The notes beneath the pieces are model-generated. The model did not search any database and was not told the origin of the DNA. It saw only the letters and a list, made by a program, of their open reading frames with translations. The position numbers were made by a program, and so were the translations under genes. Positions 13,491 through 52,001 of a stretch of 64,000 nucleotides of DNA are shown here, one piece after another (the stretch's first letter is position 1; every line of letters begins with the position of its first letter). The DNA is from Plantactinospora soyae (GTDB taxonomy: Bacteria > Actinomycetota > Actinomycetes > Mycobacteriales > Micromonosporaceae): positions 2,852,001-2,916,000 of the forward strand of contig NZ_JADBEB010000001.1 in the NCBI RefSeq assembly GCF_014874095.1, given 5' to 3'.

Positions 13491-13678
13491 GGCTGTTCGC
13501 CCTCCAAGGCCGTTCCCGGGTCGTGACCAGCCCGTCCGGCGGCCCACAACCGTGTCCGGGCCGAGGCTAGGAAGACCGGACGCTCCGCCGGAACACCCGA
13601 CGGGGCGATCCGGGCGTACCCCCGGCGGGGTAGTCGGGCTGCTCCCGTGGGGTGATCCGGCCGGGTCGCCGTACCGGA

Positions 13679-13684
13679 TAACGT
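13679..13684 (+). promoter_or_regulatory. -10-like hexamer TAACGT for the two-component system
   Basis: TAACGT lies seven bases before the GTG start of the histidine kinase, fitting a leaderless transcript that starts at the GTG. The 200-bp divergent spacer must also hold the MMPL promoter. Confidence 0.4.
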
Positions 13685-13691
13685 CCGTGGT

Positions 13692-20300: not shown

Positions 20301-20747
20301 CCGGTGCCCGTCACCCAGAGTCCGCCCACCGGCCCGGCCGGCATGGGTGGGTCTCCGGCCGGTGGCAACGGCGCCGGGCGGCCGGGCGAGAGGTCGGGTG
20401 GCTGGCGTACGGCCGCCGACGACGGCTGGCGGGCGGCCATGGCGGCCACCACGGCAGCCACGGCACCGGCTCCCGCCGAGACAACTCAGACCGGCCTCCC
20501 CAAGCGGGTGCCGATGGCCCAGTTGGTGCCCGGAGCCGTGGAGAAGCCAGTCATCTCGGCACAGCGTCGTACACCGGAGGCGGTGCGTGGACTCCTGTCC
20601 GCGTACCACCGTGGGGTGCAGCGTGGCCGCACGAACCCCACAGACGACCAGTCGACCAACCCGGAGGCGACTCCGGCAGGGCAGCAATCCCCGCAGGCCG
20701 ATGTGGGCCCCGCGGCCGCTAGCGGCCAGAAGGAGCATGAAGGATGA
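17340..20747 (+). CDS. cvnA: Conservon sensor-kinase-like protein with NIT domain (CvnA)
   Basis: A 1135-residue membrane protein. TM1 is near residues 33-55, an extracytoplasmic nitrate/nitrite-sensing-type (NIT) helical domain follows to about 325, TM2 ([24 protein letters not shown]) near 330-355, then a HAMP region and a kinase-like core with [20 protein letters not shown] and the ATP-binding N-box [16 protein letters not shown] plus DRGIGI. The last ~450 residues are Pro/Ala-rich and end in a conserved patch ([32 protein letters not shown]). CvnA proteins signal together with CvnB-D as a G-protein-like complex at the membrane in streptomycetes. The tail patch is shared with the minus-strand protein at 24298-26664. 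The stop overlaps cvnB. Confidence 0.9.
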
Positions 20748-35233: not shown

Positions 35234-35237
35234 GCCG

Positions 35238-35633
35238 TCACCTCGCCGCGCTCGGCGCGGGCGGCTCTTCGGCGGCCTCCTCGGCGAGGGCGGCGCGCAG
35301 CACGTCGGCCTCGGTCCCGGTCACCGACCGGGCGAACCGGACCAGTGCCGCGTCCCGGCTGCCGGCCAGGTCCAGGGCGTCGAGCATCAGCCGGGCGATG
35401 TGCGCCTCCCGGCTGGCGGCCGGCCGGTAGCTCCAGGCCCGACCCGCCCGCTCCCGTTCGACCATGCCCTTGCCGGCCAGCCGGTCCAGCACGGTCATCA
35501 CCGTGGTGTACGCCAGTTCGCGGTCCCGGAGCGCCTCGGCCACCTCGCGTACGGTCACCCCGGAGCCGGCGCTCGCGCCCCGGTCCCAGAGCACGTCCAT
35601 CACGGCACGTTCGAGATCACCGAGTCGCGTCAC
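35238..35633 (-). CDS. blaI: BlaI/MecI-family transcriptional repressor
   Basis: A 131-residue winged-helix repressor. It begins TRLGDLERAVMDVLWDRG and has the recognition region LAYTTVMTVLDRLAGKGMVERERAGRAWSYRPA and a dimerising C-terminal helix bundle, as in BlaI. The M. tuberculosis orthologue controls itself, the M56 partner, beta-lactamase and respiratory/ATP-synthase genes. A matching palindrome at its own start (35644-35660) and a perfect one before cydA (34282-34298) suggest that it controls both. GTG follows a TAGACT -10-like hexamer by six bases, so a leaderless mRNA is likely. Confidence 0.92.
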   Translation of the reverse strand: MTRLGDLERAVMDVLWDRGASAGSGVTVREVAEALRDRELAYTTVMTVLDRLAGKGMVERERAGRAWSYRPAASREAHIARLMLDALDLAGSRDAALVRFARSVTGTEADVLRAALAEEAAEEPPAPSAAR

Positions 35634-35972: not shown

Positions 35973-36152
35973 ATGAAGAGAGTCGGGCCCGACGTCGAGG
36001 GGCATCTGGTCGATCTCGACGACATCCCGCTGGCCCAGGTGCTGCAGATGGACGAGGATGAGTCCGTGCTGGCCAACTCCATCCGGAGGGTCATCGATGC
36101 GGCCCAGCGGCATCCCCGGGACACCGTGGCGGCGTTCAACAACTACATCTGA
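35973..36152 (+). CDS. fxsA: FxSxx-COOH-type precursor peptide (FxsA-like)
   Basis: 59 residues. The leader VDLDDIPLAQVLQMDEDESV and LANSIRRVIDAA resembles FxsA leaders (LP..L, acidic patch, helical R-R-V). The peptide ends AAFNNYI. Family members end F-x-S-x-x at the carboxyl terminus, and radical SAM FxsB crosslinks the Phe ring to the residue two positions on, giving a three-residue cyclophane. Here that residue is Asn (F-N-N), a departure from the family name. ATG is 10 bases after GGAGGA. fxsB begins inside it. Identification rests on position beside fxsB and the carboxyl-terminal pattern. Confidence 0.8.
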   Translation: MKRVGPDVEGHLVDLDDIPLAQVLQMDEDESVLANSIRRVIDAAQRHPRDTVAAFNNYI

Positions 36153-37356
36153 CACGCTGCCCGCACAGCCAGACGGGAACGGTGCGAAGGGTTCCGACAC
36201 CGCGGTCGGCACGCCGGTTCGGCAGGTGCTGCTCAAAATCCACAGCCGCTGCAACCTGGCCTGCGACTACTGCTACGTCTACCAGCACGTCGATCAGACC
36301 TGGCGGGACCGGCCCAGGACGATGTCCCGGGCCGTCGTCGACCTGGCGGCCACCCGGATCGGTGAACACGCGCGGCAACATGGACTCGGCCGGGTGACGG
36401 TCATCCTGCACGGTGGCGAACCACTGCTGGCCGGTCGGGAACTCGTCGGTCACGTCGCGCGGAGCGTCCGCGCGGCCGTTCCGGCCAGCACCGCGGTCGA
36501 CCTGCGGGTCCAGACGAACGGGGTACTGCTCGACGAGACGTTCCTCGACCTGCTCGACCGGTACGACATCCGGGTCGGGGTCAGCCTGGACGGCCCGGAG
36601 GCGGCCAATGACCGACACCGGATCTTCGCGAACGGACAGGGCAGCCACCAGGCGGTCGCACAGGCGTTGGAGCGGCTCGACCAGCACCGGTACCGGCACC
36701 TCTACGGTGGCATCCTCTGCACGATCAACCTGGCGAACGATCCGCTCGACGTGTACCGGAGTCTGCTGACCTTCGCACCGCCCCGGATGGACTTCCTGCT
36801 GCCGCACGGCAACTGGACCACGCCACCGCCCGGCCGGCGGACCGACAGCGCGGAGACGCCGTACGCGGACTGGCTCCGCCCGATCTTCGACGAGTGGTAC
36901 GCCACCCGGCCGCAGCGGACCGGAATCCGACTGTTCGAGTCGTTGATCGATCTGCTGCTCGGCGGTTCGAGCGGTAGCGAGGTGGTAGGGCTCAGCCCGA
37001 GTGACCTGATCACGGTGGAGACCGACGGCGCGATCGAGCAGGGCGACGCGTTGAAGACCACGGCGGAGGGGATGGCGGCCACCGGCCTGCACGTCCGGTC
37101 GTCCACCTTCGACGAGGCGATCGCCCAGCCGGCCTTCCGGTCCCGCCAGTCCGGCCTGGCGGGGCTCGCGGCCACCTGCCGGAGATGTCCGCTGGTCCGG
37201 GTCTGCGGTGGCGGCCTGTACGCCCACCGCTACCGGGCCGCGAACGGGTTCGACAACCCGTCGGTCTACTGCCCGGACCTGACGGCACTGATCACCCACA
37301 TCCGCAGTCGACTGAACGCGGAACTGGCCGCCCTGCGGGGGCGCTCGCCGGGCTAG
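36097..37356 (+). CDS. fxsB: FxsB-like radical SAM/SPASM peptide maturase
   Basis: 419 residues. The radical SAM cluster motif is C52NLAC56DYC59 in a KIHSRCNLACDYCYVYQH context; HGGEPLLAG is the SAM-binding GGE motif; VGVSLDGPEAANDRHR follows. The C-terminal SPASM part (CRRCPLVRVCGGG ... YCPDL) binds auxiliary Fe-S clusters. It should form the aromatic crosslink on the FxsA peptide. ATG 36097 is chosen because GGAGGG (36085-36090) lies six bases upstream, which makes it overlap fxsA by 56 bases; GTG 36058 and later starts are possible. No HExxH domain is fused; that function is encoded separately at 49250-51112. It converges with fxsT 12 bases later. Confidence 0.88.
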   Translation: MRPSGIPGTPWRRSTTTSDTLPAQPDGNGAKGSDTAVGTPVRQVLLKIHSRCNLACDYCYVYQHVDQTWRDRPRTMSRAVVDLAATRIGEHARQHGLGRVTVILHGGEPLLAGRELVGHVARSVRAAVPASTAVDLRVQTNGVLLDETFLDLLDRYDIRVGVSLDGPEAANDRHRIFANGQGSHQAVAQALERLDQHRYRHLYGGILCTINLANDPLDVYRSLLTFAPPRMDFLLPHGNWTTPPPGRRTDSAETPYADWLRPIFDEWYATRPQRTGIRLFESLIDLLLGGSSGSEVVGLSPSDLITVETDGAIEQGDALKTTAEGMAATGLHVRSSTFDEAIAQPAFRSRQSGLAGLAATCRRCPLVRVCGGGLYAHRYRAANGFDNPSVYCPDLTALITHIRSRLNAELAALRGRSPG

Positions 37357-37368
37357 CGTCGCAGCGGC

Positions 37369-40300
37369 TCAGAACTGTAAGAGATCGATCTCGCACTCCG
37401 CCCGTTCTCTGGCCAGGATCGCGGCGGTGAGCGGATGCTCGCGGCCGACGCCCCGGGTCGCCCGCGCGACCAGGTCGGCGCGGAAGTCCGCCAACCCGCC
37501 GAGGTCGCCCACCGCCGTCCGGCTCGCCGCGAGGTTGCACCCGGCGGTCAACAGGTCCGGATGGGTGTCCCGGAAGATCCGTGCCATCCCGTCGTACGCC
37601 AGCCGTTCCAGTTCCAGCGCGGCCGCCGGGTCGTCGAGGGCGAACCGGACGTTCGCGGCGATGACCAGGCACTGCAGCGTGTACGGATGCCCGTCGCCCA
37701 GAGCGGTTCGCATGCCGCCGAGTGCGGCGTCGGCCTCCCGGGCAGCGGTGTCGAGTTCACCGTTGCGACGCAGGTAGATCGCGAGGTTTCCCCGGACGGC
37801 CAGCACGTACGGATGGGTCTCGGGGAGGACGTCCTGCTGCCGCTGGATGTTCTCCCAGCCCAACTCCAGCGCCTCCACCTGGTTGCCCAGTGCGGACAGC
37901 GTCAACGCGAGGGCATTGGCGCAGGCGAGCCGGTCCGGATTGGTCTCCGAGCGGGACGTCCGGAAGATCTCGTAGGTCGCCCTGGCCAGGTTCAGCGCGG
38001 CGTCCAGGTGGCCCAGCCGCCGGAGGGTGGCGGCAAGCTCGACCCGGGCACGCATGGTCGACGCCTGGTCGTCACCGTGCACCTCGCGATGCCCGGCCAC
38101 GGCCGCCTCCAGGACGCGTCGCGAGGCGCGCAGGTCACCGGTGAGCCGGAGCACCCGGCCGTGGCTCGTCGCCGAGAAGAGGGTGTCCGGAAACCGTTCG
38201 CCGAGCAACCGGCGGCGTCCCTGGTACGCCTGCTCGTGCAGCCGCAGAGCCTCCCAGTAGTCGCCGAGGAATTCCAGGACGACGGCCAGGTTGTTCATCG
38301 CCCGAAGAGTCCGGTGGTCATCCGCGTCGAACAGTTCGGTCGACAGCTGCAGGACCTCCCGGTTGAGATCACGTGCTCGGACGAACTCACCGGTGCTCCA
38401 GAGGTCGGCGGCGAGCCCGGCCATGCACAGCAGGGTGTGCGCGTGCCGCAGGCCCACCGTCCGGAGCAGGCCCTGGTAGGCCTCCTCGCTCAGCCGCCGG
38501 GCATCGACGTACCTGGCCTGTGGGCGTAGGACGTTGGCGAGGAAGATCTTCGCGGCCAACACACTGAGGTCGTCCTCCGGGGACTGGCCCTCCCAGACCT
38601 CCAGCGCCGGCCCCAGCAGCTCCGCGCTCGCGGCGAAGTCTCCCCGTCGGTAGAGGTAGCGACCGACGCCGAGCACCAGTTGCCGGACGTCGTCGTCAGT
38701 GGACTGGAGTGCCCGTACCGCGACGACGTGCGGCCACAGGCTGGCGAAGGTCGGCCAGGTGTCGGGCTGCTCGGGGTCGCCGGGGTTGACGGAGACCAGG
38801 ATCTGGTGCACCTGTCGCCGGGACCGTTTCTCGACCTCGCCGGACAGGCTCTGCCGGATGACCGCCGACACGAGCCGGTGCAGTTGGACGCTGGCCTGCG
38901 TCGCGTCGAAGGTGGCGAGGGCGGAACGCCGGGCCTGCTCGACCACGCCGGCAAAGGTGGTGACGTCCCGCAGCGCCGTGTCATCGCCGGCCACGATATC
39001 GATCAACCGCTGGCTGTAGAGCAGCGAGGCGGGGATCGGTTCCGGTCCGAAGAAGGCCAGTAGCTCCATGAGCCGGCCCGCCGCCGGGCTCTCCGCGCGG
39101 AGCCGGTCGAGGGAGAGCAGCCAGGTCGCCGGCCCGGCTTCCTTGTATCCCGCGGGCAGGTTCTCGGCGAGCAGCCGGGACAGCTGGCTGTCGAGCAGCG
39201 TGAGGTACCGGTCGACCGGCATCCTGGTGGCCGCGAGCCAGGAGCCTGCCTGCTCGACGGCGAGGGGTAGGTCACCGAGCCGCCGGGCGACCTCCTCGGC
39301 GTCCTGCGCAGTGAGCGCCGGCATGCGGAGCCGGAGCAGCTCGACGCTCTCGTCCCGGCCGAACGGGCCGACCTCGATGAGCTTGCCCCTGCTGCCCCAG
39401 CCCAGAGCCCGCGAGGTGACCAGGACGTGCGCGGCGCCGTCGGGCAGGATGTCCGCCAGTTCCTCGGGATCTCCGGCGTTGTCGAAGACGAGCAACCACC
39501 GCTGGTCGGCGGGGGGCCGCTCGAGGATCTCGACCAGCAGCCTGATCCGGTCGCCGGGCGTCTCCGCGTTCCGTACCCGCAGTTCGTCGGCCAGGTCGAC
39601 CAGGCCGGCCCGGGCCATGCTGGTCTGTGCCGCCGAGATCCACCACACCGCGTCGTAGTCGGCGGCGAAGCGGTGTGCGTACTCGGTCGCGATCTGGCTC
39701 TTGCCGACGCCCGCGATACCGCTGAGGGTCAACGGCGGGACCGGGGCCGGAGCCGACGACAGATGGTCGCGGATCTGGGACAGCAGCTGCCGCCGGCCGG
39801 TGAAGCCGGAGTTGCGCGGCGGCAGCCGGGAGACCTGGGGTGGCGCCGGGAAGCGTGGCGACACGAGTCGCACCGCGCCCTCGGGCTCGACGACCGGCCG
39901 GTTGAGCGTGGCCAGCAGGCCGGCCCGGGCACTCTCCGCCGGCATCCCGGACAGCTCCAGTACCCCGTACCGTTCGAGTTCGTCGGGCGGCGCCGTGCCG
40001 TCCAGCGAGATGGTCAGCACGTTCGACCGGCCGCGTTCGCGGGCATCCGTCGACTGTCGGACCCATCCCGCTATCTCCGTCGGCAGGCGGTACGAGACGG
40101 AGAGCAGCACGGTGACCAGGTCGGCACCCTCCGCCGTCGGTTCCGGCTCGGCCGGCCCGCCCCGGTGCGACTCTTCGACCTCCCGCAGGATCGTCGGCAG
40201 CCCGACCTCGGCCATCACCCCGGCGACCCACTCGGCCCAGATCCGGTCCTCGGCCGCGTAACTGACCAGTGCCCGGGTCATCGCCCGTGGACGGGTCCGC

Positions 40301-41292
40301 TCGAACCGGGCCAGCCAGTGCCGCCGGGCTCCCTCCTCCAACGGGGTGAGTGGCCGCACGAGGTCGCCACCGACGACCGCGGCCAGTCGTTCGTACGCGG
40401 CGAGCAGCGTGCTCGGCTGCCGGGCCCGGTCACCGAATACCGCCAGGATCTCCTCGTACGCGTAGAACAGCTTGTACGGGATCTCCACATCGGCCCAGTA
40501 CCGTGCCTGGTCGTCCGCGCCCAGGTGCTGGAGGAACGGCGCGAACCGGAGCCAGGCGTAGTCCCGCCCCGCTTCGAGCTTGCTCTGTTCGCCGTCCTCC
40601 ACCCGCATCGGCACGGGCAGGATCCGCACGGGTTCGTTGGCCCGCAGGTTGCGGATCGACCGGGCGACCGCCACCGCGCCGTCGATGCTCTGGGTGCTGA
40701 GGGTGAAGCAGTTCAGCACCGTGTCCGGCAGCAGAACGGTGCAGATGCCGGCGCTGTCGCTCAGCCCGGTGCGGCTGTCGATCAGGACGAAGTCGTAGTG
40801 GTCGCGCAGATTCTGCCGCAGTTCGGCCAGGAACGCGGCGCCGCCCAGCCGGTCGTAGAAACTCGGCCAGTCGAAGGTGCTCACCGTCGCCGAGTACGCC
40901 GGCCCCTGACGCCCGGCCGGCAGCAGATCGAGTTCCCCGCCACCGCTGAACCGCCAGCCCAGGGAGACCGCGTACCGACGGACGTCCGGGGCCATCCTCG
41001 TCGGAGTCGTCGGCTGGCCGGACCCCTGGACCACCGTGGCGGCGAAGTCCCGGACGAGGTCGATGACACCGTCCGAGGCATGCAGTTGGGGATCGTCGGT
41101 GAGCAGGGGATGGAAGAAGCGGTGCAGTCCCGGCGACTCCAGGTCCCAGTCGACGGCGAGTACCCGGTGCCCGCTGCTGGCCAGGAGCCAGGCGACATTG
41201 GCCAGCGCCATCGTGCGCCCGGTTCCTCCCTTGTACGAATAGAAGGTAATGATATGCCCGGAAGAACGCCCCGGCACGGATGTGGGTGCCAT
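37369..41292 (-). CDS. FxsT-like KGG-ATPase/TIR-like/NB-ARC/TPR protein, copy 1
   Basis: 1307 residues. (1) MinD/ParA-type ATPase: ITFYSYKGGTGRTMALAN, KGGTGRT at 21-27, with Arg in place of the usual second Lys. (2) A divergent TIR-like domain near 350-480 (ALVSYAAEDRIWAEWV). (3) NB-ARC ATPase near 520-800 with Walker A SGIAGVGKSQIA and Walker B-like WLLVFDNAGDPE. (4) A C-terminal array of tetratricopeptide repeats (about 850-1290). This matches the FxSxx-COOH-system TPR protein. The architecture resembles NLR-like signalling or immunity proteins. ATG with GAAGGAG upstream; it lies 13 bases after fxsC copy 1. Copy 2 is at 45270-49196. Confidence 0.85.
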   Translation of the reverse strand: MAPTSVPGRSSGHIITFYSYKGGTGRTMALANVAWLLASSGHRVLAVDWDLESPGLHRFFHPLLTDDPQLHASDGVIDLVRDFAATVVQGSGQPTTPTRMAPDVRRYAVSLGWRFSGGGELDLLPAGRQGPAYSATVSTFDWPSFYDRLGGAAFLAELRQNLRDHYDFVLIDSRTGLSDSAGICTVLLPDTVLNCFTLSTQSIDGAVAVARSIRNLRANEPVRILPVPMRVEDGEQSKLEAGRDYAWLRFAPFLQHLGADDQARYWADVEIPYKLFYAYEEILAVFGDRARQPSTLLAAYERLAAVVGGDLVRPLTPLEEGARRHWLARFERTRPRAMTRALVSYAAEDRIWAEWVAGVMAEVGLPTILREVEESHRGGPAEPEPTAEGADLVTVLLSVSYRLPTEIAGWVRQSTDARERGRSNVLTISLDGTAPPDELERYGVLELSGMPAESARAGLLATLNRPVVEPEGAVRLVSPRFPAPPQVSRLPPRNSGFTGRRQLLSQIRDHLSSAPAPVPPLTLSGIAGVGKSQIATEYAHRFAADYDAVWWISAAQTSMARAGLVDLADELRVRNAETPGDRIRLLVEILERPPADQRWLLVFDNAGDPEELADILPDGAAHVLVTSRALGWGSRGKLIEVGPFGRDESVELLRLRMPALTAQDAEEVARRLGDLPLAVEQAGSWLAATRMPVDRYLTLLDSQLSRLLAENLPAGYKEAGPATWLLSLDRLRAESPAAGRLMELLAFFGPEPIPASLLYSQRLIDIVAGDDTALRDVTTFAGVVEQARRSALATFDATQASVQLHRLVSAVIRQSLSGEVEKRSRRQVHQILVSVNPGDPEQPDTWPTFASLWPHVVAVRALQSTDDDVRQLVLGVGRYLYRRGDFAASAELLGPALEVWEGQSPEDDLSVLAAKIFLANVLRPQARYVDARRLSEEAYQGLLRTVGLRHAHTLLCMAGLAADLWSTGEFVRARDLNREVLQLSTELFDADDHRTLRAMNNLAVVLEFLGDYWEALRLHEQAYQGRRRLLGERFPDTLFSATSHGRVLRLTGDLRASRRVLEAAVAGHREVHGDDQASTMRARVELAATLRRLGHLDAALNLARATYEIFRTSRSETNPDRLACANALALTLSALGNQVEALELGWENIQRQQDVLPETHPYVLAVRGNLAIYLRRNGELDTAAREADAALGGMRTALGDGHPYTLQCLVIAANVRFALDDPAAALELERLAYDGMARIFRDTHPDLLTAGCNLAASRTAVGDLGGLADFRADLVARATRGVGREHPLTAAILARERAECEIDLLQF

Positions 41293-41305
41293 TCCAGACT
41301 CCTTC

Positions 41306-42568
41306 TCAGGGTCCCTCGAGAATTGGTCGGGTACGCCTCGGCATCGAGGTCTCGGTGTCGGGTGCGGCGGCACGGGCGAAGACCCGGTTGCGGGCCACCT
41401 CGAGGACCACCTGCAGATCCTCGTCAAAGGACCGGTGAGTCAGGATGTCCGCCCGGTAGGCGAGCGGCTCTCCGCTCGCCACCCGGTGCAGCATCACGCT
41501 CCGCAACCCGTCGGAGAGTCGTCGCCAGTTGTGGTGCGTCTCGGGATCCTCATGATTCCGCGGGATCATCGCGGCGGTGGCGGGAGCCTGCTGGATCTCC
41601 TGTTCGGCCAGAGCCTGCCGATAGTCGTCGAGCTGCGTCGCCCAGGCATCCACGAGGAGCACCACGATCGAGTTGCCGGCCGGGGGCATGCCGGCTCCGG
41701 GCAGCAGCGGCAGGGGTGACGCGTCCGAGCTGAGGCCGCGTCTTCCCGCTACCGCACGGGCGAAACTGGCCAGCGAGTCCGGGAGCGCGGGCAGGTACGG
41801 CGCCCAGTCGAGCGAGGCCGCACCGTAGAAGTGCACATCCCGGCGGATCGTGCTGGCCTCCTGCTGACTGGGCGCGGCGATCACGAAATGGACGTGGTCG
41901 GATCGAGGACGCAGGTGCGGCTCGTCCGCCGGTGGAGGGGTGATCCCGGCCGGGTCGTGGAACGCGCTCCTGACGGTGTGGAAGTCGATCCGGGGGCTGT
42001 TCGGCGGCGGCTCGAGTGCGTTGGTGGTGGCGTTGTCCACTATCCGATCGGCGAGGATGCTGATCGCCTCGATGTACTCGTCCTCGTTGCGGCGTAGCCG
42101 CATCAGTTGGCGTAGTCCGTCCCGCCGGTAGGCGTCGCTGAACACGTCCCGGTCGTACTGCACCTCCTGCACCGCGTCGGGTATCTGGCGGGGCGGTAGC
42201 CAGAGGACCGGCAGCAGCGCGGCGGAGCGGATCTTGTTCGTCTCCTCGTGCTGGCGTACGCGTTCGGCGAACATCTGCCATTCCCGACCACACGGTTCGC
42301 TGGCGAAGTATCGGGGCGAGAAGAGCGCCAGGAAGGAACAGGCGTTCGAGAGAGCGTCCACCAGGTCCGCCGACCACGTCGCGCCGATCTCGATGCTGTT
42401 CTTGTCGAAGAAGCCGACCTCGGCCCCGCTTGCCAGCCCCGCGCGGACCCGTACCTCTGCACAGAGATCCTTGTAGAACCGCTCGACGTACGGGTCGTCG
42501 TCGCTGCGCGCGTAGCTGAGGAAGAAATGCAGGCGGCGAGGGACCCCGGGCTGCTGCGGCGCGCTCAC
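41306..42568 (-). CDS. FxsC-like TIR protein, copy 1
   Basis: About 420 residues. The N-terminal TIR-like domain (RLHFFLSYARSDDD, EVGFFDKNSIEIGATW, FLALFSPRYFASEPCGREW) keeps the Glu at the TIR catalytic position (E96, GREW). The C-terminal FxsC domain includes HVHFVIAAPSQQEA, HFYGAASLDWAPYLP, NSIVVLLVDAWATQLDDYR and ends RPILEGP. GTG 42568 is preferred; the frame also allows ATG 42646, adding 26 unlikely residues. It is co-directional and 13 bases from fxsT copy 1, so the two form a module. TIR domains often consume NAD or form signalling assemblies; activity here is untested. Confidence 0.82.
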   Translation of the reverse strand: MSAPQQPGVPRRLHFFLSYARSDDDPYVERFYKDLCAEVRVRAGLASGAEVGFFDKNSIEIGATWSADLVDALSNACSFLALFSPRYFASEPCGREWQMFAERVRQHEETNKIRSAALLPVLWLPPRQIPDAVQEVQYDRDVFSDAYRRDGLRQLMRLRRNEDEYIEAISILADRIVDNATTNALEPPPNSPRIDFHTVRSAFHDPAGITPPPADEPHLRPRSDHVHFVIAAPSQQEASTIRRDVHFYGAASLDWAPYLPALPDSLASFARAVAGRRGLSSDASPLPLLPGAGMPPAGNSIVVLLVDAWATQLDDYRQALAEQEIQQAPATAAMIPRNHEDPETHHNWRRLSDGLRSVMLHRVASGEPLAYRADILTHRSFDEDLQVVLEVARNRVFARAAAPDTETSMPRRTRPILEGP

Positions 42569-43041
42569 CCGAACAACCCCCGTATCGCCGGCGGAAGAAT
42601 CACGAGGCGGATGCGAGGCCTGACGACCGGACATCCGCACAGACATGATGCACGCTTCGGCGACGATTGCGTAGTGATTGGGTTACGGGATAGATTGGTG
42701 CGATCACTGGAGACTCGATAAAGCGGCGCTGACCTGGCGTGATTCATATTTGCGCAGTTGAGTTGATCAGTTACGTGCGGCCATGAGGTAGCAAGGAGGT
42801 TGACGCCTCGAGCGATGCGTCCGGAGTCACCGGAGGGCAGTGTGCGCAGTGGACACCAGATAATCTTCCATTGCGCGCCGACCTGGGCATACTGGCCGGC
42901 TCTGTTGACGCGCCGGCACCGTACCTTGCGTCCGGGCCGTTCGTCCCCCCAGAATGGGACCGCTGTCCCGACGGGGCCTCTTTGCGCAACGCAATCCACG
43001 AAGCTCGGCCGCATGATCCGCCCCCGCGGGAGGAGGAGCTG
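42569..43041. other. Divergent control region of the two fxsC modules
   Basis: About 470 bases between fxsC copy 1 and fxsC copy 2, noticeably more AT-rich around 42650-42780 than the surroundings, and expected to hold two divergent promoters. The frame of fxsC copy 2 stays open back to 42787, so part may be coding. No second FxsA-like peptide was found in any frame. Confidence 0.5.
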
Positions 43042-44229
43042 TTGACGCAGTTCTTCCTGAGTCGTGCCGCGGGTGACGACGACAGCTACGCGATCCGCTT
43101 CTTCCGGGACCTCTCGGCCAAGGTCAGGGAAATCTCGGGTGTGGACGGCGAGGTCGGATTCGTCGAAACGGTCGACAGCGACAGCCGCTCACCCTGGTCC
43201 GCACCGGCCCGTAACGCCCTGGCCGGTTGCCAGGCGTTCGTCGCGCTCTGTTCGCCGCGCTTCTTCCTCAGCGAACGCTGCGGACGACAGTGGTGGATCT
43301 TCGCCGATCGGCTCGACCGGTACGCGAAGCAGACCGGCCAGCAACCTCCGGCGCTGCTGTCGGTGCTCTGGTCCGGCGGCAGCGGCGTGGACGGCGCGCC
43401 CGGCGAGGGCCGCGAGGCGGTCCGGCAGCTCATCAGACTTCGCAGCCACCGACCGCGCTACGAGTCCCTGCTGACCACGCTGGCTACGCAGATCGTCCGG
43501 ACCGTCGAGGAGCACCGCATTCCACCGGTCAGTCCCAACTTCGATCCGGCGAACGTGCCGAGCGCCTTCGACTACGCGGGAGTGGAGTCGGCGCTCCAGA
43601 CGCCCTCGGCGAAGGATCTGGCCGAGGCCGCCACCCAGCACGTGCACTTCATCGTGGCGGCGGGCACCCGTGCCGAGATGGGCGCGGTCCGCGACGACAT
43701 CCGCTTCTACGGTGATCGGGGACAGGACTGGGCCGCATACCGGCCGGCGCTCTCGGGCCCACTCGTCGCGCACGCCCGTACGCTCGCCGCCGAGCGCCTG
43801 TTCCGGTCGGATGTCATCGATCTCGACGATCTGTCCGAACGCCTCGACCAGGCGCGCAGGAACAACGAGATCGTTGTCCTGCTGGTCGACGCGTGGATCA
43901 CGAAGCTCGCGGCCTACCGGCGGATACTTGCCGAGTTCGACGATCAGACGGATTCGAGCGTCGCGGTGCTGGCGCCGGCCAACGTGACCGACGCGGAGAC
44001 GGTCCGGCACAGCGGTGAGCTCCGGGCCGGACTGGCCCAGACCTTTCCGCACAATCTCGCGCGTGGGGACCAACTGGTTCGTATCGAGATCGACAGCCCC
44101 GAATCGTTCGAGATCGACCTTGTCTCGGCGCTCGAGGAGGCGCAGAATCGCATCTTCAGCCGTGGACGGGTGTTCCGCAGGCCGGCCCAGGACGCGCCGG
44201 CCGACCGACCCATCCTGCAGGGTCCGTAA
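43042..44229 (+). CDS. FxsC-like TIR protein, copy 2, catalytic-position Glu replaced by Gln
   Basis: 395 residues. The TIR-like part reads TQFFLSRAAGDDD, ISGVDGEVGFVETVDSDSRSPW, FVALCSPRFFLSERCGRQWW. At the position where copy 1 and the third TIR protein have Glu (CGREW, CGKEW), it has Gln (Q83, CGRQW), so any NAD-cleaving activity should be lost. The FxsC domain is intact (HVHFIVAAGTRAEM, RFYGDRGQDWAAYRPAL, NEIVVLLVDAWITKLAAYR) and it ends RPILQGP. TTG 43042 after GGGAGGAGGAG is chosen from the ribosome site and homology to copy 1; the frame extends upstream to TTG 42871 and beyond. First gene of the rightward module. Confidence 0.78.
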   Translation: MTQFFLSRAAGDDDSYAIRFFRDLSAKVREISGVDGEVGFVETVDSDSRSPWSAPARNALAGCQAFVALCSPRFFLSERCGRQWWIFADRLDRYAKQTGQQPPALLSVLWSGGSGVDGAPGEGREAVRQLIRLRSHRPRYESLLTTLATQIVRTVEEHRIPPVSPNFDPANVPSAFDYAGVESALQTPSAKDLAEAATQHVHFIVAAGTRAEMGAVRDDIRFYGDRGQDWAAYRPALSGPLVAHARTLAAERLFRSDVIDLDDLSERLDQARRNNEIVVLLVDAWITKLAAYRRILAEFDDQTDSSVAVLAPANVTDAETVRHSGELRAGLAQTFPHNLARGDQLVRIEIDSPESFEIDLVSALEEAQNRIFSRGRVFRRPAQDAPADRPILQGP

Positions 44230-44452
44230 CGGACCGCTGATGTTCCCGACCACGTTGATCCGCGATCCGTCGTCCATGCCCCGATGGCGGCATCGGCCGG
44301 GTCCGATTCGGATCGGGGGTGCGCGGCCTTCCTACAATGAGCGTGACTCGCGTATGTTGCGCATACTGGGAACTCCTCGTCGTACGGCGATCCCCCACTC
44401 CGGTGTTGATCGGATATCCCGTTGCGTACGACGTGGGGTCCGGGGAGGGCCA

Positions 44453-45283
44453 GTGCTGTACTTCTTCTTGAGTTACGCGCACGGGGAGCGCGAGGACAGG
44501 GCTCGCGTACAGCAGTTCTTCAACGACCTGAGCACGGAGATCCGCGTACTGACCGGTGAGGACGGCGGTACGGCCGTCGGGTTCCACGACGACGGTGCAC
44601 TGCGCCTGGGGGACGACTGGCCCCGGGAATTGTTCAACGCCCTCTGTCGCGCTCAGACCATGATCGCACTCTTCTCCCCGCGCTACTTCCGCAGCGAGTT
44701 CTGTGGAAAAGAATGGGCAGTGTTCAGTGCGCGGGTCCGCCGCTGGGAGCAGCACGGCGGAAGCGGTCAGGCCCGGCTCATTCCGATCTTCTGGGTGCGG
44801 CGTACCCAGGTCCCCGATGTTATCGAGCACCTTCAGCACCGCGACGCGCGGTTCAGTGACACATACGACCGGGAGGACCTGCGTGACCTGCTCCGGGAGC
44901 ACGCGCGGGGGCGTAGCGGCGAGTACGAGCGGTTCGTCAGCGTGCTCGCCCTGATGATCACGGAGATCGCCGCCGAGGGGCATCCGATGCCCGAGTCCGA
45001 CCTCTACCCGGAGTTCCAGTCCGATCTGCGGGCGGTGGGTAGCGCGTTCCACCCGTCGCCCGACGCCGTCCGACCGGCCGGGTCGTCGGCACCGGCACCG
45101 AGACCGGAGCCCGCGGCGGTGATCGAGCCTCGACGGCCGGTCGACGTGCCGAAGGGCCCACCACCCCGGCCGATTCTCAGTCTCGAGGAGGACCCGGAGC
45201 GGCCCGAGCCGGGCGAGCCGGCCGGGGACAGCACGGGTGCCGCGCCGCACAACATGAGGGGTGGTGGTCATGAGCGACCCTGA
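44453..45283 (+). CDS. Third TIR-domain protein of the Fxs locus
   Basis: 276 residues. A single TIR-like domain (LYFFLSYAHGERED, EIRVLTGEDGGTAVGFHDD, IALFSPRYFRSEFCGKEW, with E87 at the catalytic position) is followed by a Pro-rich tail containing PPPRPILSLEED. It lacks the second FxsC domain but retains the RPIL element found at the ends of both FxsC proteins. GTG 44453 follows GGGGAGGG. The end overlaps fxsT copy 2 by 14 bases, indicating translational coupling. The 223-base gap before it (44230-44452) shows no gene. Confidence 0.8.
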   Translation: MLYFFLSYAHGEREDRARVQQFFNDLSTEIRVLTGEDGGTAVGFHDDGALRLGDDWPRELFNALCRAQTMIALFSPRYFRSEFCGKEWAVFSARVRRWEQHGGSGQARLIPIFWVRRTQVPDVIEHLQHRDARFSDTYDREDLRDLLREHARGRSGEYERFVSVLALMITEIAAEGHPMPESDLYPEFQSDLRAVGSAFHPSPDAVRPAGSSAPAPRPEPAAVIEPRRPVDVPKGPPPRPILSLEEDPERPEPGEPAGDSTGAAPHNMRGGGHERP

Positions 45284-48200: not shown

Positions 48201-49196
48201 AACCAGCAGGGGTGGGCGCGCTGGCGCAGCGCCTACGGCGACGACCACTTCCGGACGCTGATGGCGGCGAACAACGCCGCTGCGGCCGAACGGTTCAACG
48301 GCCGCTACCGCGAGGCCTTCCAGATCGACACGGACAACCTCCGGCGCCGACGCAAGGTGCTGGGCGAGCGGGACTACTGGACGCTGCACTCCGCCGTGGC
48401 CCTCGGTCGCGACATGCGGGCGTTGGGCGACCTGGAGCAATCTCGGGCGTTGTTGACCAATGCTCTGCGGGACTGCCAGGTGGAGCTCGGCGACGACAAC
48501 CGGCTCAGCCTGTGGGCGGCCAAGAGCCTGGCGGTGACGCTGCGCCGGATGGGGCGCCCCCAGGAGGCCGTCGCGCTCCTCGACGACACTCTCCGCCGGT
48601 CCCAGAAGACATTCGGGGAGCGGCATCCGGAAACCATGCAGTGCCTACTGGAGTCCGCCTGCCTGCACTCCGCGCTCGACGACCAGGCCCTGGCCCGGCA
48701 ACAGGTGGAGGACGTCTTGGCGTACTTCCGCGAGACGTACGGTGCCGACAACCCGCTCACGCTGGGCGCGGCGAACGATCTCGGCATGATCCTGCTCCGG
48801 ACCGGTGACGCCGAGGCCGCGTTGCCGATCCTCGAGGAGACCGCCGAGCAGTTCGCCGACGTCCTCGGCGACGATCATCCGTTCACGCTGGCCTGCCGAC
48901 TCAACCTGGCGAATGCCCGGCATGCCACAGGCAGCCAGGCCGACGCCCGACGCCTCGACGAGCGTACTCAGGGGAAGCTGGTCGAACGGCTCGGTCGGCA
49001 ACACCCGACCACGATCGCGGCGACCTCCAACCTGGCGATCAGCCTCCGGGACACCGGCGCGCTGCACGATGCTCGGCAGCAGACCCAGAAGGCGCTCGAG
49101 TTCTCCCGGCAGGTCCTCGGCGACGAACATCCGAACACCATCGCGGTCCGGGACGGCCACCGCATCAAGGTCGACATCGAACTGGAGCCGCTGTAG
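45270..49196 (+). CDS. FxsT-like KGG-ATPase/TIR-like/NB-ARC/TPR protein, copy 2
   Basis: 1308 residues, collinear with copy 1. IITFYSYKGGTGRTMALANIAW places KGGTGRT at residues 21-27 as in copy 1; the divergent TIR-like segment is LVISYAPRDRIWAEWVAAEL; NB-ARC Walker A is LGLGGVGKTQIALEYAH near residue 527 with WLIIFDNPEEPE; the C-terminal third is TPR-rich (LGPDHFYTLEAAGGLAADYWL, LGRQHPTTIAATSNLAISLRD). ATG 45270 has GAGGGG upstream and overlaps the TIR gene. It converges with the HExxH gene 53 bases downstream. Two near-equal-length copies facing outward suggest an ancient duplication rather than a fresh one, since the sequences differ widely. Confidence 0.85.
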   Translation: MSDPEGVRQHAGRIITFYSYKGGTGRTMALANIAWLLANNGHRVLTIDWDLESPGLHRYLHPFLVDKELRGSHGVIDLVREYAKAATRPAAGGSEVLHPDEVSNLARIQRYASSLEFPFPNDGGIDLVPAGRQGPEYSTRVSTFNWDDFYDRLGGAVFLDALREDLRSHYDYVLIDSRTGLSDTAGICTVLLPDVLVNCFTMSTQSIQGAVSVARSIRNLRRGQPIRIFPVPTRVEDGEQTKLERSRTHARQLFEPFVRALDRQDSDKYWGSVEIPYKVYYAYEEILAAFGDRPRQEGTLLAAYERLAGIVVGSPIELPITMPETRRLRWLADFERRAPLSPGELVISYAPRDRIWAEWVAAELSRVSQQSRLVEQRASMEEVDRADRILVLLSQEYTRSREAARLWRRGQEREYDGPGRFVVPIRFDATPTPAMFEERDVVELHGVSGMQARESLLAALDLMDVSSSPGAGEGQTWPRFPAALPPIWRVPARNPAFTGRDAIVEMLRNRLHRHPTAQPLALLGLGGVGKTQIALEYAHRFAAYYDIVWWISADQPQIVRAELAKLAGQMKLAGSTVNEQVDAVLQALRQGSRFPRWLIIFDNPEEPEQIRDFLPDGPGDVIVTTRNQSWTHVTEYLEIGVFERAESVELISRRVQTLMPSDAEAVAERLGDLPLVVEQAAAWLATTAMPVRSYLNLLDTRLPEMLAERPPQGYPNSAAVTWSLSMERLRESRPAAARLLELFSFFSPEPIPTWLLSTPRMVEELAKVDRAMRDPLLHGALIQDIGRYALARVDPAINAIRVHRLVQTVIRDAMSVEARVESRVQVQEILAATSAARQGGVDDRENWSTYEELRPHLEPSGALESRDDAVRQLVLDMVRYLRLRGDLAGSEELAEAAVKQWSTMFDTEDALALRLRVQLANTLRDVGRSRESLAISEEVLPRLTELLGPDHFYTLEAAGGLAADYWLYGRYREATTLNQQGWARWRSAYGDDHFRTLMAANNAAAAERFNGRYREAFQIDTDNLRRRRKVLGERDYWTLHSAVALGRDMRALGDLEQSRALLTNALRDCQVELGDDNRLSLWAAKSLAVTLRRMGRPQEAVALLDDTLRRSQKTFGERHPETMQCLLESACLHSALDDQALARQQVEDVLAYFRETYGADNPLTLGAANDLGMILLRTGDAEAALPILEETAEQFADVLGDDHPFTLACRLNLANARHATGSQADARRLDERTQGKLVERLGRQHPTTIAATSNLAISLRDTGALHDARQQTQKALEFSRQVLGDEHPNTIAVRDGHRIKVDIELEPL

Positions 49197-49249
49197 GTCC
49201 GCGGTGGAAGTCGCGACATCCGGCCGCGTCAACGTATTCCTCGAACTGG

Positions 49250-51112
49250 TCAGGGCAATGCCCTGGTCAGCCACTCGGCCACCTGCTCCGGCGGGACCCG
49301 ACCGCCGGCGGCGACGTACAACCTGTGAACCAGTCCGGGGTGGTCGATCAGGGTTCTGGACACGACGGTCCGGCCGGTCGTCGCACGAACTGTCGCTACT
49401 ACGAGTCGAACCCAACCTTCGAGATCGTCGGGGCGAATCTCTGCCGCGTACGCGCGGGCGGCGTCGCCGTACCGGCCGGCGAGATAGGCGGCGTCCCCGT
49501 GATGCGGCGCGCACGCGGCGGCCGGTCCGGGAGTCATGTGCAGGCTCGACCGGATCAGGTTGGCCAGGGCCGGCTCGGATGCGGCTGGTGCACCGAAGGG
49601 GGACTTCCGGGACGCCAACGAGTCGATCAGTTCGGCCGAGTCGGCCAACCAGGCGGGCAGGGGCGCCGCCACCAGCCGGGCGAGAGTCGCCGAATCGGGT
49701 GTCGCGTTCAGCAGCCGCCATCGCACGGCGTACCCGAGCGCGGCGTCGGCGGCGGCCTGGTCGATCTCCGGCGGCAACGGTTCTCCGGCCCAGGCTTCCA
49801 ATCGATCCCGCAACGGCGTGACGAACGCAGTGCCGAGGGCGGTCAGTTCGCCCGCGTACAGGAGATCGTGCACCGCGAGCAGGGTGAGTCGGCGCCAGAG
49901 GGCGAATTCGAAGTGCGCGGTCCGAGCGGCTCCCGGATCCGCCAAGAGCAGACGACGCCGTCGCCAGAAATCGCAGACGCCGAGGTGGGCATAGACGCCG
50001 TGTAGTGCGGCGGATACCGGGCGTGGGTCGGAGCGCCAAGCAGCGATGTACCGGGCGACGCCATCTGTTTCATACAGGTCGTACAGGTCGAGGATCGCCA
50101 CCAGTTTCATGTGCTGGAACTCGTGGATCAGGGACAGGGCCAGCGCTTCCGCCGTGGAGTTCGCCGACACCGCCAGTGACCCGTACGCCTGGAACGACGT
50201 GGCGCCCTGGCTCGTACCATTCTCCGACGGCGCGAGCGGCATCAGGGAGATGAGCGCCGCGCGCATCCCCCGCGCATAGTCGGAGTAGTCCGTGTCCAGG
50301 ACGGACCATGCCTCGCGGCACAGCTGGTCGAAGCGGAGGGCCGCCGACCCGTCGAGCCGTGGCGCCGGGGGCCACTGGTGGCAGTTCCGGTACGGGTCGA
50401 GGTCCTCGATCCGTACTGTGTAGCGGCGTCGAGGACCATCGACCCGGATCCGCCGGACCGGAAGCCAGTGCTCCGACTCGCGTCGGAACGGACCCGACAC
50501 CACGACAGTGTGAAGCTCGCCGACGAAGGTCAGCGCCGACCCGTCGCCGACCACACGAACCCGATGGTCACCCAGTCCCACCAGGGCACCGAGCGTGGGG
50601 AGGACCAGCACGCCGTCCCGGACCGGCAGCGTGACGTCGAAGAGCAGTCCGGCGGCTGCCCCGGCTGCGGCGGCGAGAGCGGTCAGGTATCCGAGCTCGT
50701 CCTCGATTCCCGGCGGCCTGGACGGATCGGCCCCGTCGACCGAGAGCAGCTGGCGTAAACAGGAACTGGCCCAGTTGTCGAGGTACGGATGCGCCAGTAC
50801 CGAGTGCACGGATTCCGGCCGGGCCGCCTCGGCCTCGCCGAGCAGTCGCGTCGCCTCGGCCACGACGGAGGCGATGTCCTCGCCCAGTTTCATCGCCTCT
50901 AGTACCACCGTGAGCAGTTGCAGTCTCCGTTTGGAGCGTTGACTGGCGGAGAGGACGCCGATGGCGTACCGATCGCCATCGCCCTGCGCCAGGGCGACGA
51001 TCTGCTCGGTGGTCAGCCGATGACGCCGGACGGAATTGCCACGCACGTGCCCGTCATGCGACGTCGGCGGCGCTCTTCCTGCGGATCCCGAGGATAGTTC
51101 CCGGCTCTCCAT
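49250..51112 (-). CDS. HExxH-motif peptide-modification protein (beta-hydroxylase-like)
   Basis: 620 residues. The motif LSLIHEFQHMKLVAI contains H330-E-F-Q-H334, the signature of the HExxH proteins that accompany or are fused to FxsB; some members are 2-oxoglutarate/iron-dependent peptide beta-hydroxylases. Other family-like stretches are GVYAHLGVCDFWRRRR and LRDRLEAWAGEPLP. It probably introduces a second modification into the FxsA peptide. ATG 51112 with GAAGGTGG upstream; the folded part probably begins near residue 30 (RRHRLTTEQIVALAQGD). The AAC(3)-like gene precedes it by 23 bases on the same strand. Confidence 0.82.
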   Translation of the reverse strand: MESRELSSGSAGRAPPTSHDGHVRGNSVRRHRLTTEQIVALAQGDGDRYAIGVLSASQRSKRRLQLLTVVLEAMKLGEDIASVVAEATRLLGEAEAARPESVHSVLAHPYLDNWASSCLRQLLSVDGADPSRPPGIEDELGYLTALAAAAGAAAGLLFDVTLPVRDGVLVLPTLGALVGLGDHRVRVVGDGSALTFVGELHTVVVSGPFRRESEHWLPVRRIRVDGPRRRYTVRIEDLDPYRNCHQWPPAPRLDGSAALRFDQLCREAWSVLDTDYSDYARGMRAALISLMPLAPSENGTSQGATSFQAYGSLAVSANSTAEALALSLIHEFQHMKLVAILDLYDLYETDGVARYIAAWRSDPRPVSAALHGVYAHLGVCDFWRRRRLLLADPGAARTAHFEFALWRRLTLLAVHDLLYAGELTALGTAFVTPLRDRLEAWAGEPLPPEIDQAAADAALGYAVRWRLLNATPDSATLARLVAAPLPAWLADSAELIDSLASRKSPFGAPAASEPALANLIRSSLHMTPGPAAACAPHHGDAAYLAGRYGDAARAYAAEIRPDDLEGWVRLVVATVRATTGRTVVSRTLIDHPGLVHRLYVAAGGRVPPEQVAEWLTRALP

Positions 51113-51135
51113 GTGCCACCTTCGGCGCGCCGCCG

Positions 51136-51954
51136 TCAGTTGGGGGACGCGCGCTGCTCCGACGCCTGGCGATGGCGGGGCAGCCAGGTGGTCGCGAACG
51201 TCACCGCCGACGTGATTGGCAACAGCCGGGCCGTCCCGGCACCCACATTACCGATCCGCACGGCATTCGCGGAGGTCAATTCGAAAGCTCGTCCGAGCTC
51301 CACGAAGTCACGGTCGTCCAGGGCAGCAGCCTGGTACGTGGTCCACCGCCGACCTTCCGGTGTCAGCACCACGCACCGGTTCGGCCGCCGGCCCAGCCCC
51401 GGCAGGCGGTACTCCGCCAGATGGAACGCGGTGCACCGGTCGTACCCGACGCCGAGCAGCAACGTCTCGCCCCCGGCCGCCTCGATCGCCCCCAGCGGCG
51501 AGTCCGGGCCGATTTCCGAGGTGATCGGATGCCGGGCGGTCAACTCCCGGGCCCGGAAGCCGACCGCGGCGAACGAGGTCTGCGGATGGCTACTGCGGAA
51601 GGCGTTGGGCCAGGTCCGGACCGTCTCGGCGATCAGCCCCAGCTCGCGGCAGGGTGTCACGGCGGGATCGAACGCCGGCAGTTCGGCGCGGATCGCCGGC
51701 CACCACGCCTCCGGCACCCGGACGTGGGACCACCGGGACGGGTCGCGGTTCTCCCGGGTGAACGCCGGTACGACCAGCGTCCCGGCCGCGCCCAGCACGT
51801 CGAGCAGCGCCCGGACCACCGTCGGGGCGCCGCCGCAGACCCAGCCGAGGGATCGGAGCGAGGCGTGCAGCAGAAGGGTGGTCCCCGGGCGTACGCCCAG
51901 GGCGCGGAAGTCCCGGACGAGACTGCTCCGGGTCTGTGGCACCGGCTCGGTCAT
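51136..51954 (-). CDS. AAC(3)-family N-acetyltransferase in the Fxs locus
   Basis: 272 residues with the antibiotic-acetyltransferase (AAC(3)) pattern: TRSSLVRDFRALGVRPGTTLLLHASLRSLGWVCGG, AGTLVVPAFTRENRDP, SHPQTSFAAVGFRA and DSPLGAIEAAGGETLLLGVGYDRCTAFHLAEY, keeping the catalytic His and acidic partners. Members acetylate the 3-amino group of aminoglycosides, but many relatives act on other amines. Its pairing with the HExxH gene (23 bases apart, same direction) suggests a role in tailoring or neutralising the Fxs product instead of, or besides, aminoglycoside resistance. GTG 51981 is an alternative start. Confidence 0.82.
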   Translation of the reverse strand: MTEPVPQTRSSLVRDFRALGVRPGTTLLLHASLRSLGWVCGGAPTVVRALLDVLGAAGTLVVPAFTRENRDPSRWSHVRVPEAWWPAIRAELPAFDPAVTPCRELGLIAETVRTWPNAFRSSHPQTSFAAVGFRARELTARHPITSEIGPDSPLGAIEAAGGETLLLGVGYDRCTAFHLAEYRLPGLGRRPNRCVVLTPEGRRWTTYQAAALDDRDFVELGRAFELTSANAVRIGNVGAGTARLLPITSAVTFATTWLPRHRQASEQRASPN

Positions 51955-52001
51955 GCGAACGGAGTGTGCCAGAAACGACACCGAACGTCAGATGCCCGTC
52001 G

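What the first reader, a model, noticed from the sequence alone, without database searches (positions are those of the whole stretch)
35973..51954. Expanded Fxs (FxSxx-COOH) peptide-modification locus with doubled TIR and NLR-like parts
One precursor gene and one radical SAM/SPASM maturase are accompanied by two FxsC-like TIR proteins, a third TIR protein, two 1.3-kilo-residue KGG-ATPase/NB-ARC/TPR proteins, a HExxH protein and an AAC(3)-like enzyme. A basic Fxs set needs far fewer genes. TIR, NB-ARC and TPR modules are the building blocks of immune and cell-death receptors, so the modified peptide may be a signal sensed by, or guarding, the FxsC/FxsT complexes (inference). Product, target and trigger are unknown.
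Basis: partly seen in the sequence, partly recalled or inferred. Interest (0 to 1): 0.9.

Follow-up and report, generated by a model that had tools for sequence, protein, structure and literature searches.

The report
Fxs locus with live/dead TIR pair
A soil actinobacterium carries a known kind of peptide-modifying locus joined to two immune-receptor-like modules, one with an apparently working TIR enzyme and one whose TIR enzyme has lost its catalytic residue, an arrangement that recalls the paired immune receptors of plants.

Summary
In detail: FxsA, FxsB, two FxsT, two FxsC, a TIR-only FxsC-like protein, an αKG-HExxH protein and an AAC(3) homologue lie at 35973-51981. The kind is known: eLife 2020 (PMC7159879) described FxSxx peptide-processing loci with TIR/AP-ATPase/TPR and ParA-like parts and proposed a toxin or signal. 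HExxH, AAC(3) and an extra TIR occur in other Fxs loci. The doubling is the news: an old split into modules α (37369-42646, minus) and β (43042-49196, plus), also together in Phytohabitans, Actinoplanes and Paractinoplanes. FxsC-α keeps the presumed TIR catalytic Glu. FxsC-β lacks it in 15 of 16 genomes (V, Q, S, R, Y, D or C instead), though neighbouring residues are invariant and the dead TIR is under purifying selection. Of 72 loci with an FxsC-type TIR, all 19 with a Glu-less one also encode a Glu-bearing one, and all 25 with a single TIR keep Glu; on the tree this is essentially one origin. The peptide core is FNNYI, not FxSxx. Best reading: a paired NLR-like switch controlled by a cyclophane peptide, FxsC-β being a non-catalytic partner. 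Function is untested.

The parts
35973..36152 (+). fxsA, 59-aa precursor ending ...VAAFNNYI (FxN core)
   Evidence: TIGR04268 30.6 bits, cut-off 28; closely similar in G397, G402 and in another genus, G417
36058..37356 (+). fxsB, radical SAM/SPASM cyclophane maturase (start uncertain; domain from about 36220)
   Evidence: TIGR04269 518 bits; ChlB 9gm3 E 2.5e-87
37369..41292 (-). fxsT-alpha: ParA-like KGGTGR domain, degenerate TIR, NB-ARC, TPR (ATG at 41292 is my choice; frame open to 41427)
   Evidence: NF040586 835 bits; alpha clade 87/95
41306..42646 (-). fxsC-alpha: TIR with Glu (CGREW), C-terminal alpha/beta domain, RPILEGP tail
   Evidence: NF040588 and TIGR04276 over cut-off
42647..43041 (.). 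divergent region between the alpha and beta modules
   Evidence: ORF map; no sigma-70-like site found
43042..44229 (+). fxsC-beta: TIR with Gln instead of Glu (CGRQW), C-terminal domain, RPILQGP tail; frame is open from 42871
   Evidence: TIGR04276 140 bits, NF040588 102 bits below cut-off; in the Glu-poor FxsC clade, 21 rows, 100/99
44354..45283 (+). third TIR protein: TIR with Glu, no FxsC C-terminal domain, internal RPIL (frame open from 44015; start uncertain)
   Evidence: NF040588 151 bits
45261..49196 (+). fxsT-beta: ParA-like KGGTGR domain, degenerate TIR, NB-ARC, TPR
   Evidence: NF040586 942 bits; beta clade 100/100
49250..51112 (-). alpha-KG HExxH-type peptide hydroxylase homologue (HEFQH kept)
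   Evidence: TIGR04267 146 bits; PDB 22nu E 3.9e-57, ChlH 8s5f E 1.3e-4
51136..51981 (-). AAC(3)-like acetyltransferase (start uncertain)
   Evidence: PF02522 278 bits; AAC hits in 28 of 81 mapped stretches, window included

Best explanation
It is a two-module Fxs locus. Shown by sequence: one precursor and one cyclophane-type maturase are linked to two old paralogous FxsC/FxsT modules, alpha with a Glu-bearing TIR and beta with a conserved TIR that lacks Glu. Inferred: FxsB ties the Phe of FNNYI to the Asn two residues on, and the HExxH and AAC(3) enzymes finish the peptide. Loaded with or deprived of that peptide, the FxsT proteins (NB-ARC switch, TPR sensor) let the FxsC TIRs assemble. FxsC-alpha, and perhaps the TIR-only protein, then act as the enzyme, probably on NAD. 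FxsC-beta enters the same assembly as a non-catalytic partner that restrains or licenses it. The RPILxGP tails could dock FxsC to FxsT. My odds: alpha/beta live/dead anatomy 0.9; beta as non-catalytic partner of alpha or of the TIR-only protein 0.55; peptide as the controlling ligand 0.45; NAD consumption as the output 0.4.
For: Family profiles. Two FxsT groups, each holding one member of the doubled loci, beta 100/100, alpha 87/95. FxsC: the Glu-less proteins lie in one clade (100/99), alpha in another (88/94). Glu state: beta lacks it in 15 of 16, G397 keeps it; 10 of these 16 were rows of the profile that defines beta (A2), and the 6 found with it are all Glu-less. All 11 TIR-only proteins of that set have Glu, and so do the readable FxsC-alpha partners. 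Over 72 loci, 19 of 19 with a Glu-less TIR have a Glu-bearing one, 25 of 25 with one TIR protein keep Glu, none lacks Glu entirely. Dead TIR under purifying selection, dN/dS 0.15 (G397) and 0.24 (G402). In the 10-row beta alignment R136, C137, G138, R139 and W141 are invariant around position 140; in the 16, G, R and W stay invariant and one has N for C. NB-ARC Lys kept in 107 of 107 FxsT. RP[IV]LxGP tail in 16 of 16 beta and in 14 of 14 alpha-partner rows. TIR fold match to plant TIRs, Foldseek E 8.5e-4, with Glu122 in the helix at 117-137. The maturases XncB and OscB are reported to join Phe to Asn (PMC11002830 passage).
Against: No activity has been measured. G397 FxsC-beta has Glu (one codon step, CAG/GAG), and L189's FxsC, in the same clade, has it too. 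The pairing rule rests on essentially one origin of the Glu-less clade, so 19 of 19 is not 19 events. The catalytic Glu is assigned by motif, model and a weak match to PDB 3h16 (E 1.2); no site-level superposition was done. The module is not untouchable: G402 has lost nearly all of fxsT-alpha and the end of fxsC-alpha, Rhizocola (L175) keeps only a 327-aa ParA-like piece of FxsT-alpha, and FxsT-beta is split over frames in G428 and P. flavus, whether by decay or sequencing error. No model of a complex was made.
Confidence: 0.5

Rival explanations
1. Two independent receptor modules: each FxsC/FxsT pair answers to its own peptide, and the beta TIR works by binding alone with no link to alpha.
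For: 8 of 16 beta loci carry two FxsB in the stretch held, each with a small precursor-like frame beside it; the two window FxsT are only 44% identical.
Against: The other 8 of 16, the window among them, show a single FxsB. Window FxsB lies outside the B2 clade (98/96) while P. tereljensis and G465 have only a B2-type FxsB in their stretch, so either maturase alone seems to suffice beside two modules. Where there is one TIR protein it keeps Glu (25 of 25).
Confidence: 0.25
2. A secreted RiPP (antibiotic or toxin) cluster in which FxsC/FxsT serve as producer immunity or regulation.
For: Radical SAM, HExxH and AAC(3) enzymes are tailoring enzymes; PMC7159879 also offers 'peptide toxin' as an option.
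Against: None of the nine locus proteins scanned is a transporter or a recognised peptidase (smaller frames and genes further out were not scanned); the receptor genes are the bulk of the locus.
Confidence: 0.12
3. Neutral decay: a duplicated module drifting to loss, with the Glu substitutions as its first sign.
For: Position 140 takes many residues; G402 has lost most of alpha and the third TIR, and its HExxH frame is broken; FxsT-beta is split over frames in 2 of 16 beta loci.
Against: dN/dS of FxsC-beta 0.14-0.25 and of its TIR 0.15-0.24; beta present in 16 of 250 family genomes over 6 genus codes, with its tail kept in 16 of 16.
Confidence: 0.08

Closest known systems
Standalone FxSxx peptide-processing systems of actinobacteria (eLife 2020, PMC7159879)
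   Same: Short C-terminal-motif precursor, radical SAM/SPASM, HExxH (zincin-like) protein, AP-ATPase with TPR and an inactive ParA-like domain
   Different: Two receptor modules; FxN core; live/dead FxsC split, which section 24 (read whole) does not mention; the HExxH family is there called a peptidase, while later work describes alpha-KG oxygenases (passages of PMC12636437)
Triceptide / three-residue cyclophane systems; ChlB and ChlH
   Same: FxsB homologous to ChlB (296 bits), HExxH protein to ChlH (24 bits)
   Different: HExxH here is a separate protein; core and modification not measured. The ChlBH paper itself is not held and is known here only through PMC12636437
Single-module Micromonospora and Plantactinospora Fxs loci (L013, L031, L103)
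   Same: FxsB, HExxH, convergent FxsT and FxsC; L031 and L103 in the alpha group, L013 in a sister group
   Different: No beta module; cores FESSF or WNSAM
Plant paired TIR-NLRs RPS4/RRS1
   Same: Two TIR plus NB-ARC receptors; a self-inhibited pair whose release lets RPS4 TIRs act (PMC9153377 passages). That RRS1's TIR is inactive and that the genes lie head to head is recalled, from no call
   Different: Not homologous as a system; FxsC carries the Glu-bearing TIR apart from the NB-ARC protein; the peptide chemistry has no plant counterpart that I know of

Membership tests
Fxs (FxSxx-COOH) system | Precursor over the TIGR04268 cut-off | tested here: met
   30.6 vs 28 bits
Fxs (FxSxx-COOH) system | Literal FxSxx C-terminus | tested here: not met
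   FNNYI; hence called an FxN variant. Of 16 beta loci 15 have at least one FxN precursor-like frame, picked by eye
Fxs (FxSxx-COOH) system | FxsB over the TIGR04269 cut-off | tested here: met
   518 vs 370 bits
Fxs (FxSxx-COOH) system | FxsT and FxsC partners | tested here: met
   FxsC-beta's TIR half is below its cut-off, the third TIR lacks the C-terminal half
Fxs (FxSxx-COOH) system | Cyclophane on the precursor | not testable with these tools
   Needs mass spectrometry and NMR
alpha-KG HExxH peptide hydroxylase | Domain over cut-off with HExxH kept | tested here: met
   146 vs 40 bits, HEFQH
alpha-KG HExxH peptide hydroxylase | alpha-KG-dependent hydroxylation | not testable with these tools
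   Biochemistry needed
TIR NADase | Glu in the alpha-C helix | tested here: inconclusive
   Present in 41306-42646 and 44015-45283, Gln in 43042-44229; at the aligned position of the FxsT TIRs 1 of 107 has Glu and 47 a gap
TIR NADase | NAD hydrolysis | not testable with these tools
   Assay needed
STAND/NB-ARC switch | P-loop Lys | tested here: met
   107 of 107 aligned FxsT, window's two included
VMAP (vWA-MoxR) ternary system | vWA and MoxR components | tested here: not met
   No such Pfam domain over cut-off in the nine locus proteins scanned; one VMAP-M4 hit far below cut-off, 15.5 vs 27 bits, in 37369-41427

The most novel reading that the evidence does not exclude
A bacterial paired-NLR system: a cyclophane-bearing peptide, made on the spot, keeps a live-TIR module and a catalytically dead TIR module locked together; the dead FxsC-beta is the sensor or brake and the live FxsC-alpha the executor, as in plant sensor/executor pairs.
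Probability: 0.3. Interest if true: 0.88.

Novelty: new variant of a known kind. Interest (0 to 1): 0.62.

Why it matters
The purpose of Fxs peptides is an open question. A natural live/dead TIR pair, found in six genus codes of one family and always accompanied by a Glu-bearing TIR in the loci examined, gives two clean predictions: the FxsC TIR is an enzyme, and it works in an assembly with a non-catalytic partner. It would also offer a bacterial counterpart of paired immune receptors, with a modified peptide as a possible ligand, and makes both testable with few genes.

Tried and rejected
Rejected: fusion of two locus types. The first maps suggested a merger of the <FxsT <FxsC type with the FxsBH-AAC-TIR-FxsC-FxsT type; the FxsT trees put both window FxsT with the former. 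Rejected: recent local duplication (FxsT 44% identical; split shared across genera). Rejected: FxN core as a strict mark of beta loci; G490 has FDS and FQS, and Hamadaea, without beta in its stretch, has FGN. Weakened: window FxsB as beta-side type, 98/84 but 82/66. No use: sequence search of FxsC against solved structures; the fold of the FxsC C-terminal domain gave no match at E 0.001 (best hits receiver- and flavodoxin-like). PADLOC: candidate family PDC-M28B matched the ParA-like part of both FxsT (E 5.6e-25 and 1.1e-21) and pVip matched the radical SAM core of FxsB (E 1.1e-11); nothing strong for FxsC, HExxH or AAC(3). I take these as shared domains, not as proof of defence. A first FxsB dN/dS against G397 was out of frame and is discarded.

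Literature: searches for FxSxx, FxsC, FxsT, FxsA, FxsB, cyclophane with TIR, triceptide with NB-ARC or TIR-like (listings capped at 40 of 100 and 15 of 61) gave PMC7159879 as the one paper on such loci; PMC12734244 uses the term only as a gene label in a fungal table (passages). Most subscription papers are not held, so this is no proof that the live/dead pair is unpublished. Other papers were seen as passages only (PMC11002830, PMC12636437, PMC9153377).

Rows dropped or not used: 6 of 37 fused FxsBH places were not fetched; 80 of 86 were. Of the 81 stretches only 42 have an FxsC-type TIR hit; the rest say nothing about the Glu rule. In some searches L125, L126, L130 and L120 were dropped as copies of L031, L032, L013 and L187; L140 and L136 were merged with L118 and L128. 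L117, L119, L121-L124, L132, L134 and L135 were replaced by other stretches of the same records, and L133 was left out. L178's alpha FxsC is split over two frames; the 'E' of its second piece means nothing (its first piece has Glu), and that piece was left out. Stretches for one search were chosen because they hold FxsC, so beta loci are over-represented. 'Single TIR' and gene counts hold for the stretch fetched, mostly 20 kb.
Full report
Observation. NCBIfam and Pfam profiles assign the precursor, the maturase, both FxsT, the FxsC halves, the αKG-HExxH protein and an AAC(3)-like enzyme. The window lies in a 9.7-Mb genome. The FxsB and the two FxsT of this locus are the only ones over cut-off in the genome.

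What is ordinary. FxsB scores over its cut-off in 69 of 397 genomes of the order. I mapped 80 of the 86 other places over cut-off, plus the window. Two recurrent layouts appear: FxsB, HExxH, then convergent FxsT and FxsC; and fused FxsBH, AAC, TIR-only, FxsC, FxsT. One locus (L025) has the second set unfused. So HExxH, AAC(3) and a TIR-only protein are regular parts. The link of such peptide loci to TIR, AP-ATPase, TPR and an inactive ParA-like domain was published in 2020 with the proposal of a peptide toxin or signal (PMC7159879, section 24 read whole).

What is unusual. Two FxsC/FxsT pairs in one locus. The FxsT tree (44 rows) shows two groups: β (11 rows, 100/100) with window FxsT2, and α (16 rows, 87/95) with window FxsT1 and the FxsT of several single-module loci. 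Actinoplanes, Paractinoplanes and Phytohabitans suffuscus loci hold one of each. FxsC follows the same split. A profile of 10 β FxsC (A2) searched in 250 family genomes gave 16 genomes at 500 bits or more and nothing between 500 and 355 bits. Ten of the 16 are the profile's own rows; six are new. In 246 genomes drawn from the class only the window's own scored so high. Of the 16 loci, a complete or broken FxsC-α lies beside β in 14; G402 keeps only the TIR part of it, and G428 shows none but has a TIR-only protein. G417, another genus, has the window's order except that no third TIR and no AAC(3) is seen, and a precursor also ending FNNYI. A further kind of doubling, in L185 and L186, pairs a Glu-bearing FxsC with a Glu-less one that carries His.

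The live/dead split. In the first 70 FxsC-type TIRs, 69 keep Glu in the motif SPRYFxSxxCGxEW; the exception is window FxsC-β. In the larger set β lacks it in 15 of 16 (V 4, Q 3, S 2, R 2, Y 2, D 1, C 1), with G397 the exception; all six β found by the profile are Glu-less. Four further Glu-less FxsC (L183-L186) fall in the same wider clade (21 rows, 100/99, of which 19 Glu-less), so one loss with two keepers or regains explains all (at least 3 changes). Within the ten-row β alignment RCGRxW is invariant except at x. Over 72 loci with 124 FxsC-type TIR proteins, 19 have a Glu-less TIR and every one of them also encodes a Glu-bearing TIR; 25 loci with a single TIR protein all keep Glu; no locus is without Glu. 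The TIRs embedded in FxsT are not in this count. Seven FxsC from other families of the class also keep Glu; two further short hits in those stretches, one with Glu and one with Arg, look like FxsT TIRs and were not counted. In G402, where deletions removed nearly all of fxsT-α, the C-terminal part of fxsC-α and the TIR of the third protein, a Glu-bearing TIR-only frame from fxsC-α remains beside the Glu-less FxsC-β. dN/dS of the β TIR is 0.15 and 0.24 against the two congeners, so the dead domain is maintained. The Glu assignment rests on the motif, on the model of FxsC-α (mean pLDDT 77, Glu122 early in helix 117-137), on fold matches to plant TIRs such as RUN1, and on a weak alignment to PDB 3h16 (E 1.2). 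PMC9153377 (passages) places the plant catalytic Glu in the αC helix.

Other parts. All FxsT aligned keep the NB-ARC Lys (107 of 107). Their first domain has KGGxGR-type letters, with Arg at the last position in 102 of 107. At the position of their embedded TIR that aligns with the Glu, 1 of 107 has Glu (G397 FxsT-α, in a gapped stretch) and 47 have a gap. FxsC ends in RP[IV]LxGP in 16 of 16 β and in the 14 α-partner rows; with a slightly looser pattern 23 of the 30 non-β FxsC of that set have it, those 14 included. The stretch before the tail is disordered in the model, so it looks like a short docking motif; that it binds FxsT's TPRs is a guess. The FxsC C-terminal domain models well alone (pLDDT 85) as an α/β domain, with no PDB match at E 0.001. 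The HExxH protein keeps HEFQH and the WRxDxRP region seen in its two solved relatives. PMC12636437 (passages) says a rSAM-fused HExxH protein β-hydroxylates Asp and His and depends on a preinstalled cyclophane.

Peptides. The window, G397, G402 and G417 precursors end FNNYI or FNNYV. The others were picked by eye from small frames before fxsB, without a profile test. Across the 16 β loci 15 have at least one FxN precursor; G490 has FxS twice and P. flavus one of each. Single-module loci have FESSF, WNSAM or FGNAV. Phe-to-Asn cyclophanes are reported for the maturases XncB and OscB (PMC11002830 passage), so the change of Ser to Asn fits the chemistry. Eight of the 16 β loci have two FxsB, eight show one in the stretch held. 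The window's FxsB lies outside the B2 clade (98/96) while P. tereljensis and G465 have B2; its place with the B1 group is 98/84 in one tree and 82/66 in the other. One maturase therefore seems enough for two modules, which argues for shared control.

Mechanism. Shown: gene content, homology, the split, the absence of Glu with conservation of the rest, pairing by locus. Inferred: the peptide modulates FxsT; FxsT gates TIR assembly; FxsC-α is the enzyme and FxsC-β its non-catalytic partner. Plant RPS4/RRS1 is the nearest working analogy, not a relative as a system; that RRS1's TIR is inactive and the genes are head to head is recalled.

Limits. The pairing rule has essentially one origin, sampling is of drawn subsets enriched for FxsC, and no activity is known. 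Some modules are broken: FxsT-α in G402 and Rhizocola, FxsT-β in G428 and P. flavus. In G397 and G402 the DNA on both sides of the locus matches the window's flanks, which suggests vertical inheritance at a fixed site; G400's single-module locus shows no flank match. This gives no support for a defence island.

Noticed in passing
L101 (G402) 11978-14872 and 18195-20666: Congener in which about 4.3 kb (fxsT-alpha and the end of fxsC-alpha) and about 1 kb (third TIR) are deleted and the HExxH frame is broken near its end, while FxsB, FxsC-beta, FxsT-beta and AAC(3) stay open.
   Followed up: partly
L027 and L020, upstream of fxsB: Precursors with several FxSFI-type cores in one peptide.
   Followed up: no
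L012, upstream of fxsB: Four small precursor-like frames, each ending in an FxSF- or FxNF-type motif.
   Followed up: no
L031, L032, L039, L103: Precursors ending WNSAM, Trp in place of Phe; L183 and L184 end FNAAPLRRP/S.
   Followed up: no
L017, L018, L023, L026: Loci with two NB-ARC/TPR proteins in which no ParA-like domain was found, around one FxsB: another form of doubling.
   Followed up: partly
L183, L184, L189: FxsC of the Glu-poor clade next to a TIR-only protein with Glu, with no second full FxsC in the stretch.
   Followed up: partly
window 34313-35633 (-): Two small frames just upstream of fxsA, not analysed; their DNA is also upstream of the locus in G397 and G402.
   Followed up: no
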